Shown here: one piece after another, positions 9,921 through 12,378 of the stretch | Numbering within the stretch: the first letter of the stretch is position 1 | How the letters are laid out: each line of letters begins with the position of its first letter | Source of the DNA: Coriobacteriales bacterium | GTDB lineage: Bacteria > Actinomycetota > Coriobacteriia > Anaerosomatales > JACRBU01 | Length of the DNA stretch: 38,991 bases | NCBI GenBank assembly: GCA_016213085.1 | Contig: JACRBU010000051.1 | Coordinates: 1 to 38,991 of the forward strand | Direction: 5' to 3' | Made by a program: the position numbers and the translations under genes | The notes under the pieces: generated by a model | Told to the model about the DNA's origin: nothing | What the model saw: the letters and a program-made list of their open reading frames with translations, nothing else | Database searches by the model: none

Positions 9921-10772
9921 GTGCTCGGTGACGTCATCGAGTTCCTCGCGTGCCCCCACTGCGGGCGGTCGCTGGAGCTGCGGGAACGTGTCGTCGCGTG
10001 CGCCTCAGGGCACTCGTTCGACGTGGCTCGGCAGGGCTACGTGAACCTGTTGCCGGGCGACGCGCGGGCGATGACCGCGGACAACACGGAGATGGTGTGG
10101 GCTCGTGCGGCGCTCCTGGACACGGGGCGATTCGCGCCGATCGCCGATGCCGTGGCTGCCGCGGCGCGCGGGGCCCAGGCGAGTGATCTGCCGGGCTGTG
10201 TCGTCGACGTCGGCGCCGGGACCGGGTACTACCTCGCACGCACCCTCGATGCACTGCCCGGTCTGGCCGGTCTGGCTCTCGACCTTTCGAAGGCGGCGGC
10301 GAGGAGAGCTGCTCGCGCTCACGTGCGAATCGGCGCGGCTGTCTGCGACACCTGGCACGCGCTGCCAGTTCGCGACGGTTCGGCCGCGCTTGTGCTCGAC
10401 ATCTTCGCTCCGCGGAATGCGGCTGAGTTCCATCGCGTGCTGACTGAGCGTGGACGCCTGATCGTCGTGACGCCGACCGGTGCGCACCTGCACGAGCTGG
10501 TAGAGGTGCTCGGGCTCGTCACGGTCGACGAAGACAAGGAGGCGCGGCTCGAACGTCAGCTGTCGGGGCTGTTCGAGCTGGAGCGTCTGGTGCCTGTCGA
10601 GCGGATGATGGAACTCACGCAGGAGGAGGTCGGCCTTCTCGTGCGAATGGGGCCGAGCGCGTGGCACGTGGACGCGCGGCGCGTGACCGAGGCGATTCGG
10701 GAGATGGTCGTCCCGGCGCGGGTTACGCTGTCTGCGAGGATCGCCACATATAGGCGGGTCGGGGGGAGTTAG
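9921..10772 (+). CDS. 23S rRNA (guanine-N1)-methyltransferase, RlmA family
   Basis: 283-aa SAM-dependent methyltransferase. An N-terminal zinc site (C11, C14, C27, H31, in CPHC...CASGH) recognises the 23S rRNA hairpin in this family. It is followed by the RlmA-specific GYVNLLP block, a Rossmann SAM motif VVDVGAGTGYY (~93-103), and the DIFAPRNAAEF segment typical of RlmA. RlmA(I) methylates G745 and RlmA(II)/TlrB G748, the latter giving tylosin resistance; sequence alone does not decide which. The GTG at 9921 is chosen because AAGGAG lies seven bases upstream and the zinc domain begins directly after. It is divergent from the cytochrome b gene; the ATPase gene follows 45 bases downstream. Confidence 0.85.
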   Translation: MLGDVIEFLACPHCGRSLELRERVVACASGHSFDVARQGYVNLLPGDARAMTADNTEMVWARAALLDTGRFAPIADAVAAAARGAQASDLPGCVVDVGAGTGYYLARTLDALPGLAGLALDLSKAAARRAARAHVRIGAAVCDTWHALPVRDGSAALVLDIFAPRNAAEFHRVLTERGRLIVVTPTGAHLHELVEVLGLVTVDEDKEARLERQLSGLFELERLVPVERMMELTQEEVGLLVRMGPSAWHVDARRVTEAIREMVVPARVTLSARIATYRRVGGS

Positions 10773-10811
10773 ACCTTGCATTTCGGTCACGTCGTGGCGA
10801 AAATGCAAGGT
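10773..10811 (+). promoter_or_regulatory. Perfect inverted repeat covering the start region of the DUF4143 gene
   Basis: ACCTTGCATTT (10773-10783) and AAATGCAAGGT (10801-10811) are exact complements with a 17-bp spacer; a further CG/CG pair is possible with one bulge. The left arm begins at the base after the rlmA-type stop codon. The right arm contains the AAGG ribosome site (10807-10810) used for the ATG at 10818. As DNA it is a good dimer operator; as RNA it would bury the ribosome site in a stem. Confidence 0.6.
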
Positions 10812-10817
10812 ATGAAG

Positions 10818-12083
10818 ATGCTCAGGCGACACGCATGCCAGAGAATCGTGCAGCTACTGGCGTCGTTCCCGCTCGTCGCCGTGACGGGTGCGCGTCAGGT
10901 CGGGAAGTCGACCCTCGCCCAGCAAGTGCTGGGTGACATCGACGGCACGTACGTCACGCTCGATGACCCGGCGGCGCTGACGCGGGCAACGGAGGATCCG
11001 GTCGGATTCGTGCGACGCGCCGATGGGCTACTCGTCATCGACGAGATCCAGCTAGCGCCACAGCTCCTGCCGGTGATCAAGGCGGAGATCGACAGGGACC
11101 GCCACGCGGGGCGCTTTCTCATCACAGGTTCGGCTAATCTCCTCCGAATGCGCTCGGTGACTGAGAGCTTGGCAGGGCGCTCTGCCTGGTTCGAGCTGCC
11201 GCCGCTCCTGTGGTCGGAGATCGTGGCGCAGGCGCCGCCTAACACGATCGATCAGGCGTTTGCTGCCGCCGACGCCGCGACGTTCGTTTCCGCCCTTCGG
11301 CCGCCGAGTGAGGGCCATGCAGACGTCGCGAGGCGACGAGCGATCGAGGGAGGCATGCCGGAGCCGCTCCGACTGGATCCGAGTATGCGGAGCGTGTGGT
11401 ACGACGCATACCGGCAGACCTTCCTCGAACGCGACCTCCGTCAGCTTTCGCATATCGCCAGCCTGCCGGACTTTCATCGCTTGTCGACGCTCGCGCTGTT
11501 GCGCACCTCGGGCCTGCTCAACGTGAGCGACCTCGCATCGGATGCAGGGCTCACTCACGCGACAGCGCGGCGTTACCTGAACATCTTGGAGGTCGCGTAC
11601 CAGGTTTCGGAGCTGGGCCCGTACTTCGCAAACATCGGCAAACGTCTGGTCAAGCGGCCGAAGCTGTACGCCAACGACGTGGGCATGGCGTCACACGTCG
11701 CCAACATCGACACGTGGGATGTCGCCCAGGCCGCCGCGAAGGCCGGCGCGCTGATGGAGACCTGGGTCGTAAGCGAGCTTCGGGCCGCGGACGAGTTGTC
11801 ATCGAGGCGCTCGGCGGTTCACTACTGGCGCACTTCGGCCGGTGCTGAAGTGGACGTGGTCCTCGAGCGTGGCGCCGAAGTGGTAGCCATCGAAGTGAAG
11901 TCCGCCGCGACGGTCCGCTGGCGTGAGACGCTAGGCATCCGCACCCTGAGGGAAGACCTCGGTGAGAGATTCAAGCTCGGGATCGTTGCATATCTGGGCG
12001 ACGAGCTGAGGCTCCTCGACGATTCTCTGTGCTTGGTGCCTATCGCATCCCTTCTCGGCGCGACACATACGTCCGAGCCATGA
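10818..12083 (+). CDS. AAA-type ATPase with C-terminal DUF4143 domain
   Basis: 421 aa. The N-terminal ATPase (AAA_14 type) has a Walker A at 24-32 (GARQVGKST, K30), a Walker B at 70-75 (LLVIDE) and a sensor-like FLITGSANL segment. The C-terminal DUF4143 domain has a winged-helix-like middle (NVSDLASDAGL) and a PD-(D/E)XK nuclease-like end: E344-V-D346, then AIEVK (E359, K361) after a YWRTSAGAEVD block. These proteins are widespread, often recently transferred, and of unresolved function; toxin-antitoxin or mobile-element roles have been proposed. Starts at 10776 (TTG), 10803 or 10812 are possible, but only 10818 has AAGG at seven-base spacing. Confidence 0.8.
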   Translation: MLRRHACQRIVQLLASFPLVAVTGARQVGKSTLAQQVLGDIDGTYVTLDDPAALTRATEDPVGFVRRADGLLVIDEIQLAPQLLPVIKAEIDRDRHAGRFLITGSANLLRMRSVTESLAGRSAWFELPPLLWSEIVAQAPPNTIDQAFAAADAATFVSALRPPSEGHADVARRRAIEGGMPEPLRLDPSMRSVWYDAYRQTFLERDLRQLSHIASLPDFHRLSTLALLRTSGLLNVSDLASDAGLTHATARRYLNILEVAYQVSELGPYFANIGKRLVKRPKLYANDVGMASHVANIDTWDVAQAAAKAGALMETWVVSELRAADELSSRRSAVHYWRTSAGAEVDVVLERGAEVVAIEVKSAATVRWRETLGIRTLREDLGERFKLGIVAYLGDELRLLDDSLCLVPIASLLGATHTSEP

Positions 12084-12205: not shown

Positions 12206-12227
12206 GCGCAGCACGAATCGAATACGA

Positions 12228-12331
12228 CGCGGGAGCTGCTGCATAGGCGGCTGAGAGGGAAGGCCTCACCTTCCGACCGTTCGAACCTGTACGGCGCGCG
12301 AGCGCTCTGGGTAATGCCAGCGCAGGGATTG
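12228..12331 (+). promoter_or_regulatory. TPP riboswitch (THI element)
   Basis: The conserved aptamer parts occur in order: CGGGAGC, then GGCTGAGAGGG (12248-12258), an extra stem GGAAGG/CCTTCC as in many actinobacterial examples, GACC...GAACCTG, and the hallmark CTGGGTAATGCCAGCGCAGGGA. It binds thiamine pyrophosphate. It lies directly before thiM and is followed by an intrinsic terminator, so TPP binding should favour early termination. The 5' strand of helix P1 is not obvious by eye. Confidence 0.93.
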
Positions 12332-12338
12332 TGGCCTT

Positions 12339-12378
12339 AGAGGACCGCTCTCATTGCGAGGCGGTTCTCTTTTGTTTT
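12339..12378 (+). terminator. Intrinsic terminator acting as riboswitch expression platform
   Basis: AGAGGACCGC (12339-12348) pairs with GCGGTTCTCT (12361-12370) with one G-U pair. The inner CTC/GAG (12350-12352 and 12358-12360) extends the stem. TTTTGTTTT follows at 12370-12378. Its place between the TPP aptamer and the thiM ribosome site makes it the likely ON/OFF switch of the operon. Confidence 0.85.

What the first reader, a model, noticed from the sequence alone, without database searches (positions are those of the whole stretch)
10773..10834. Perfect inverted repeat fused to the start of an orphan DUF4143 ATPase gene
Exact 11-bp arms (ACCTTGCATTT / AAATGCAAGGT) with a 17-bp spacer fill the whole gap between the rlmA-type stop codon and the ATPase start. 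The right arm contains the AAGG ribosome site. DUF4143 ATPases have no settled function, and an AT-rich palindrome in a GC-rich region, touching both neighbouring coding regions, suggests self-regulation, either as an operator bound by the winged-helix-like DUF4143 part or as an RNA stem blocking translation. It could also be the target at which the nuclease-like domain acts, or an insertion junction.
Basis: partly seen in the sequence, partly recalled or inferred. Interest (0 to 1): 0.6.

Follow-up and report, generated by a model that had tools for sequence, protein, structure and literature searches.

The report
Self-operator of a DUF4143 defence-candidate ATPase
The inverted repeat is very probably the on/off switch of the gene behind it: a DNA site, laid over the gene's promoter and start codon, that the encoded ATPase-nuclease reads with its own DNA-binding helix, and such self-sites turn out to mark this very common, unexplained candidate anti-phage family across bacteria.

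Summary
The palindrome is real (10773-10811; 11-bp perfect arms, 17-nt spacer, imperfect inner stem). Alone it is no more than chance (1.7 such repeats expected per window). Comparison makes it significant. CCTTGCATTT-N17-AAATGCAAGG, with the spacer exactly 17, abuts the start codon of DUF4143 ATPase genes in Pseudomonadota, Verrucomicrobiota, Planctomycetota and others, usually single-copy per genome. Across 189 unselected DUF4143 genes, 52% carry strong inverted or direct repeats at the gene start, against 12% of control genes. The sequences differ by subfamily, and direct repeats are spaced 22-23 or 32-33 bp (two or three DNA turns). The inner triplet of the palindrome co-varies with one residue of the protein's winged-helix recognition helix (window A250): K with GG, P with AA, Q with TCC. 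It is the top of 379 protein columns and held in loci fetched afterwards. In many genes a -10 box ends 6-7 nt before the start codon, as for a leaderless mRNA. Best reading: a double-stranded autoregulatory operator superimposed on the core promoter, bound by the protein's own winged helix. The protein matches PADLOC PDC-S01, reported as the fourth most common prokaryotic defence system or candidate; no mechanism was found. Binding and repression are inferred, not shown.

The parts
10773..10811 (+). 39-bp palindromic operator (two inverted half-sites)
   Evidence: conserved at DUF4143 gene starts
10773..10791 (+). left half-site ACCTTGCATTTCGGTCACG
10793..10811 (-). right half-site, read on the minus strand ACCTTGCATTTTCGCCACG; shares TTGCA...TCGCCAC with the nearest relatives L218/L219
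10786..10788 (+). inner triplet, left copy (GTC), positions 13-15 of the 37-bp core
   Evidence: covarying triplet
10796..10798 (-). inner triplet, right copy (GCC on the minus strand)
10776..10781 (+). putative -35 element TTGCAT
   Evidence: sequence; 17-bp spacing to the next part; family pattern; inferred
10799..10804 (+). putative -10 element GAAAAT (4 of 6 matches, weak), 7 nt before ATG 10812
   Evidence: sequence; family pattern; inferred
10812..12083 (+). DUF4143 ATPase gene (PADLOC PDC-S01), 423 aa from ATG 10812, or 421 aa from ATG 10818 (the Met that aligns with the MIxR start of homologues)
10869..11222 (+). AAA_14 ATPase domain (residues 20-137)
   Evidence: Pfam 7.5e-24
11463..11672 (+). 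predicted winged helix-turn-helix (residues 218-287)
   Evidence: AlphaFold2 model, mean pLDDT 93.5
11556..11594 (+). recognition helix (residues 249-261) with specificity residue A250 at 11559-11561
11742..11993 (+). PD-(D/E)XK nuclease-like domain with conserved E316, D348, E361 and K363
   Evidence: Pfam DUF4143 2.3e-43; fold assignment by motif and PMC12988326

Best explanation
The palindrome is a double-stranded DNA operator for the protein encoded by the next gene. Two subunits of the DUF4143 ATPase bind the two inverted half-sites through their winged helix-turn-helix; the start of the recognition helix (residue 250) reads the inner triplet. In this class the operator covers the core promoter (TTGCAT in the left arm, an AAAAT-type -10 in the right arm, spacer 17), and transcription probably starts at or next to the ATG, so bound protein excludes RNA polymerase and the gene represses itself until DNA-bound protein is lost or engaged elsewhere. 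Shown by computation: conservation, position, covariation, helical phasing. Inferred: binding, dimer or higher oligomer, repression, start site, and the signal that relieves it.
For: (1) Palindromes with spacer 17 sit at DUF4143 starts in many phyla, found by a pattern that did not mention the gene, and usually once per genome. (2) In most, AAGG abuts the ATG. (3) Outer arms are nearly invariant while proteins share down to 28% identity; inner positions 13-15 are Watson-Crick in 22, 21 and 20 of 25 against about 10 expected; covariation score 0.264 against 0.100 in shuffles, 0 of 500. (4) Of 379 protein columns, residue 250 is the top correlate of the triplet (z 20.1; next 248 and 249 in the same turn, 8.9 and 6.2): K-GG 20/21, P-AA 10/10, Q-TC 6/6; in later loci alone 9/10, 4/4, 5/5. 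On the tree no scored independent switch goes the other way. (5) 98/189 unselected DUF4143 genes against 28/230 controls have strong inverted or direct repeats (p 5e-19); direct-repeat periods peak at 22-23 and 32-33. (6) -10 boxes ending 6-7 nt before the start in 22/182 genes against 1/220 controls; 0 of 18 palindrome-class genes have a Shine-Dalgarno. (7) The window's nearest relatives L218/L219 carry TTGCA/TTGTA-TCGCCAC, the window's own right half-site, inside TTG(C/T)AA-17-TATATA/TAATAT-6 nt-ATG. (8) The four DUF4143 genes of this genome do not share one operator; three have strong private ones.
Against: No binding or expression data. The window protein itself has A250, a single case with a not quite symmetric triplet (GTC/GCC), so the residue code is not tested for this member. 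The -10 (GAAAAT) is weak and the promoter scan found no site at its threshold. About half of DUF4143 genes show no strong repeat by these scores, and some palindromes stand without a DUF4143 gene. The code holds within the CCTTGCA class; iteron classes do not follow it. Related proteins are not independent data; the tree allows only 3-4 well-supported independent switches per residue. A weak excess of G-U over A-C mismatches in stems leaves room for an RNA effect.
Confidence: 0.82

Rival explanations
1. RNA hairpin: the mRNA stem hides the ribosome site and start codon and controls translation, with or without the protein binding the RNA.
For: Stable predicted stem, z -3.8; the right arm ends at the start codon; slight excess of sense-strand wobble pairs over all stems, 43 vs 23, p 0.026.
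Against: Sister DUF4143 genes have direct repeats at two or three helical turns, which cannot form such a stem. Inner pairs switch by Watson-Crick swaps with little wobble in this class, and they track a recognition-helix residue of a winged helix. If transcription starts at the ATG, the hairpin is not in the mRNA at all. No Rfam match.
Confidence: 0.1
2. The repeat is an end or scar of a mobile element or a target of the protein's nuclease domain (homing or self-marking), not a regulatory site.
For: The gene lies in shifting, often mobile surroundings (tra, par and IS neighbours); L208 and L482 keep a palindrome beside decayed DUF4143 remnants, and a few palindromes stand alone.
Against: No half-site copy at the 3' end: 3 matches in 46 flanks, two of them near-identical loci, against 2 in control stretches of similar size. 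Fixed distance to the start codon and promoter-like spacing are not expected of a target or scar. Usually one copy per genome.
Confidence: 0.06
3. The operator belongs to another, host regulator and not to the DUF4143 protein.
For: Cannot be excluded without binding data.
Against: The same class follows the gene through many phyla, and its variable triplet follows the protein's own recognition helix better than any other column; paralogues in one genome have different operators.
Confidence: 0.04
4. Chance inverted repeat with no function in this genome.
For: 1.7 such repeats are expected per window by chance; no other genome with the palindrome among 397 of the phylum.
Against: It matches the cross-phylum class exactly in arms, spacer of 17 and position at a DUF4143 start.
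Confidence: 0.02

Closest known systems
PDC-S01 (PADLOC phage-defence candidate, single gene; DUF4143 / COG1373 ATPases)
   Same: The window protein matches PDLC04790 over its length, E 3.8e-129, and all 33 aligned homologues match. [quoted passage not shown]
   Different: None of the papers found reports an operator, autoregulation or DNA-recognition code for it; the held library is incomplete.
Autorepressors with palindromic operators over their own promoter (phage repressors, toxin-antitoxin antitoxins; general knowledge)
   Same: Inverted half-sites, promoter overlap, recognition helix that co-evolves with the operator.
   Different: The DNA-binding part is one domain of an AAA+ ATPase with a nuclease-like domain; subfamilies switch between inverted pairs and arrays of direct repeats.
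Iteron arrays of plasmid replication initiators (general knowledge)
   Same: Direct repeats of about 22 bp, same helix face, at the gene of the binding protein.
   Different: No replication function is indicated; the gene stands alone in varied surroundings; a 32-33 bp class also occurs.
Archaeal AAA+ ATPases SSO1545 (2fna) and PABY2304 (2qen)
   Same: Best Foldseek matches of the model (TM 0.39-0.41 by query).
   Different: Low overall similarity; no operator known to me.

Membership tests
DUF4143 / AAA_14 ATPases | Pfam PF13173 followed by PF13635 above the curated cut-offs | tested here: met
   84.6 and 148.1 bits against cut-offs of 27 and 28.1
PDC-S01 defence candidate | full-length match to the PADLOC PDC-S01 models | tested here: met
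   E 3.8e-129, residues 1-416
PDC-S01 defence candidate | anti-phage activity | not testable with these tools
   no experiment; PMC12988326 calls validation pending for most PDCs
Autoregulatory palindromic operator | conserved with the gene at a fixed place | tested here: met
Autoregulatory palindromic operator | operator sequence co-varies with the regulator's recognition helix | tested here: met
   residue 250 against inner triplet, (met for the class; the window's A250 is a single case)
Autoregulatory palindromic operator | bound by the gene's own product and represses it | not testable with these tools
   needs gel shift and reporter
sigma-70 leaderless promoter | -35 and -10 hexamers 16-18 bp apart, -10 about 6-7 nt before the start codon | tested here: inconclusive
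   clear at family level (22/182 against 1/220) and in L218/L219; weak hexamers in the window, not found
REP/RAYT-type dispersed palindrome | many copies per genome | tested here: not met
   one copy in the window's genome and usually one in others
RNA regulatory hairpin | compensatory changes with sense-strand G-U pairs | tested here: inconclusive
   compensatory changes present but without wobble bias in the class; weak bias over all stems
Mobile-element terminal repeat | matching copy at the other end of the element | tested here: not met

The most novel reading that the evidence does not exclude
The self-operator is part of the defence mechanism: the AAA+/PD-(D/E)XK protein of PDC-S01 is parked on, and kept scarce by, its own promoter, and infection (competition by phage DNA, loss of ATP state, DNA damage or modification) frees it and switches on its nuclease, so the operator is at once repressor site, copy-number control and sensor for one of the commonest unexplained defence candidates.
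Probability: 0.2. Interest if true: 0.85.

Novelty: new variant of a known kind. Interest (0 to 1): 0.7.

Why it matters
DUF4143 ATPases (PDC-S01) are reported as the fourth most common defence across prokaryotes, yet no mechanism was found for them in the papers held. A sequence-specific DNA site for this family, a residue-level recognition code that predicts site preference, and a promoter-operator layout make the family testable at once: one can purify a member, know which DNA to give it, swap one residue and predict the change, and ask what relieves repression. It also warns that expressing such genes from foreign promoters removes their normal control.

Tried and rejected
Close orthologues of the window locus: no other genome with the palindrome among 397 of the phylum or 100 relatives, so tests rest on distant homologues. 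A viral-contig search with the single protein found no relatives. The commonest hits of the first pattern, Saprospiraceae CCTTGCATTT-3-AAATGCAAGG, have many copies per genome and no DUF4143 nearby: a different element. GGGTCAGGCCTTGCATTT palindromes in L017 and L119 look REP-like and were set aside. The first inverted-repeat score required a loop of at least 3 and missed the window's own stem; it was repeated with loop 0. Control gene starts may include some divergent genes whose upstream overlaps a DUF4143 operator, which makes the comparison conservative. The residue code was not extended to iteron classes, where a first look at helix and repeat did not fit it.

Full report
OBSERVATION. The repeat exists as described: ACCTTGCATTT (10773-10783), 17 nt, AAATGCAAGGT (10801-10811), filling the gap between the rlmA-type stop (10770-10772) and ATG 10812. 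The inner stem adds further pairs (19-nt arms, 84%). Folded as RNA it is stable (-24.7 kcal/mol, z -3.8). By itself it means little: a first-order Markov copy of the window holds 1.7 perfect 11-bp inverted repeats with spacer 3-30, and the window has two places. The gene behind it encodes an AAA_14 + DUF4143 protein, one of four DUF4143 genes in the genome.

THE PALINDROME TRAVELS WITH THE GENE. Two large groups stood out: a Saprospiraceae repeat with spacer 3 and many copies per genome, unrelated to DUF4143, and a group with spacer exactly 17 lying at the start of a DUF4143 gene in Rhodospirillales, Betaproteobacteria, a deltaproteobacterium, Mariprofundaceae, Rhizobium, Asticcacaulis, Akkermansiaceae, Ereboglobus and Pirellulales. 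Whole-genome counts with 3 mismatches allowed gave usually one copy per genome. Further searches gave about twenty more such loci. In most the right arm ends exactly at the start codon...AAATGCAAGG|ATG. In the window one T intervenes, and the homologous methionine (M-L-R-R, like M-I-x-R) is the second ATG, at 10818.

A FAMILY-WIDE HABIT. I collected 189 non-redundant DUF4143 genes found by protein or family searches (clustering) and compared -110..+25 with 230 other gene starts in the same loci. Inverted repeats of score 10 or more: 62 against 16 (p 8e-12). Direct repeats of score 10 or more: 53 against 15 (p 2e-9). Either: 98 (52%) against 28 (12%), p 5e-19. The repeat sequence differs between clades of the protein tree and is shared within them: CCTTGCA palindromes, ACCATGAAAATC palindromes (including L002 of this genome), tandem TTACTCAA-TTGAGTAA sites, GGCCTTATT palindromes, TTTACAATTGGACG iterons and others. 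Direct-repeat periods pile up at 22-23 bp (33 genes) and 32-33 bp (22 genes), that is two and three turns of B-DNA. That is the mark of a protein oligomer on double-stranded DNA, not of RNA structure.

THE PROTEIN READS THE SITE. In 26 palindromes of the class the outer seven positions never vary on the left arm, while inner positions 13-15 vary but stay complementary (22, 21 and 20 Watson-Crick of 25, about 10 expected). Sorting the proteins by triplet showed one residue following it: K with GG, P with AA, Q with TCC. Loci fetched after this was noticed gave K-GG 9/10, P-AA 4/4 and Q-TC 5/5; the Q rule rested on one earlier case. Without choosing a column, mutual information over 379 columns and 43 proteins ranks residue 250 first (z 20.1), then 248 (8.9) and 249 (6.2); all others are 6.1 or lower. 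In the AlphaFold2 model (33 sequences, mean pLDDT 93.5) these residues are at the start of helix 249-261, the second helix of a helix-turn-helix followed by a wing. On a tree built without this region the residue changes 12 times and the triplet 11 times; independent pairs on well-supported branches (about 4 for K, 4 for P, 3 for Q) never go against the rule, but are too few for a sign test to reach 0.05.

PROMOTER LAYOUT. TTGCAT in the left arm and the AAAAT of the right arm are 17 bp apart, and the latter ends about 6-7 nt before the start codon in most class members. Over unselected DUF4143 genes the best promoter-like -10 ends at -6 or -7 in 22 of 182, against 1 of 220 controls, and none of 18 palindrome-class genes has a Shine-Dalgarno. 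The nearest relatives found, L218 (44% identical) and L219 (39%), show it clearly: TTGCAA-17-TATATA-6-ATG and TTGTAA-17-TAATAT-6-ATG, with CGCCACT(G/A)AGTGGC in the spacer. The window's right half-site, read on the minus strand, is TTGCATTTTCGCCAC, matching TTGCAAAATCGCCAC of L218. So the operator and the core promoter coincide and the mRNA is probably leaderless. In the window the hexamers are weak (TTGCAT, GAAAAT), and a scan for typical promoters found nothing; this step is inference.

WHAT THE GENE IS. Walker A and B motifs, a conserved SESLAGR, and E316 / D348 / E361-x-K363 fit an AAA+ ATPase with a PD-(D/E)XK domain. PADLOC calls it PDC-S01 (E 3.8e-129; all 33 homologues). PMC12988326 reports PDC-S01 as the fourth most common defence across prokaryotes, an ATPase fused to a PD-(D/E)XK member, with experimental validation pending for most such candidates. 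PMC13356809 finds it the most frequent individual defence locus in rumen genomes. In PMC4406477 a Thermus DUF4143 gene, TT_P0211, rose 6.6-fold when plasmid and Argonaute were both present, so a member of the family is at least regulated. On plasmids the relatives stand alone among tra, par and IS genes.

ALTERNATIVES. RNA hairpin: possible as an extra effect, but it does not explain direct repeats or the recognition-helix code. Mobile-element end: no copy at the 3' end. Nuclease target: not tested. L208 and L482 show decayed gene remnants beside a palindrome, and L213, L214, L215, L461, L471, L473 and L477 have no detectable DUF4143 gene; whether these are relics, chance matches or second targets is open.

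VERDICT. Conservation, position, covariation and helical phasing are shown by computation; binding, repression, transcription start and any role in defence are inferred. As a kind it is an autoregulatory operator; new are its family-wide presence at an uncharacterised, very common ATPase-nuclease and the residue code.

Noticed in passing
window 12219-12347 (+): TPP riboswitch-like element between the DUF4143 gene and thiM; Rfam RF00059 at 33.7 bits, below the gathering score of 54.3 but E 4e-5 and over the full model. A thiM-thiE-thiC-thiL-like run follows (ORFs, names from reading the translations).
   Followed up: partly
L014, L016, L022, L070 and many more Saprospiraceae loci: A 23-bp palindrome CCTTGCATTT-TGA/TCA/CCA-AAATGCAAGG with many copies per genome in several Saprospiraceae assemblies, without DUF4143 nearby; nature unknown.
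   Followed up: no
L017 3060-3096; L119 6410-6450: Palindromes of the form GGGTCAGGCCTTGCATTT...AAATGCAAGGCCTGACCC, resembling REP/RAYT-type repeats, share the CCTTGCATTT word.
   Followed up: no
L032 633-671 and 2200-2238: Tandem duplication (period 1567 bp) of palindrome plus DUF4143 gene start in a Pirellulales MAG, at a contig end; may be real or an assembly effect.
   Followed up: partly
L213, L214, L215, L461, L471, L473, L477: Well-formed palindromes of the class without a detectable DUF4143 gene; L208 and L482 show decayed DUF4143 remnants beside the palindrome.
   Followed up: partly
L224-L228, L233, L245, L338, L435, L442: Arrays of 3-4 direct repeats of 22-23 bp (TTTACAATTGGACG / TTTCAATTGGTCG) upstream of DUF4143 genes; other clades use 32-33 bp periods.
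   Followed up: partly
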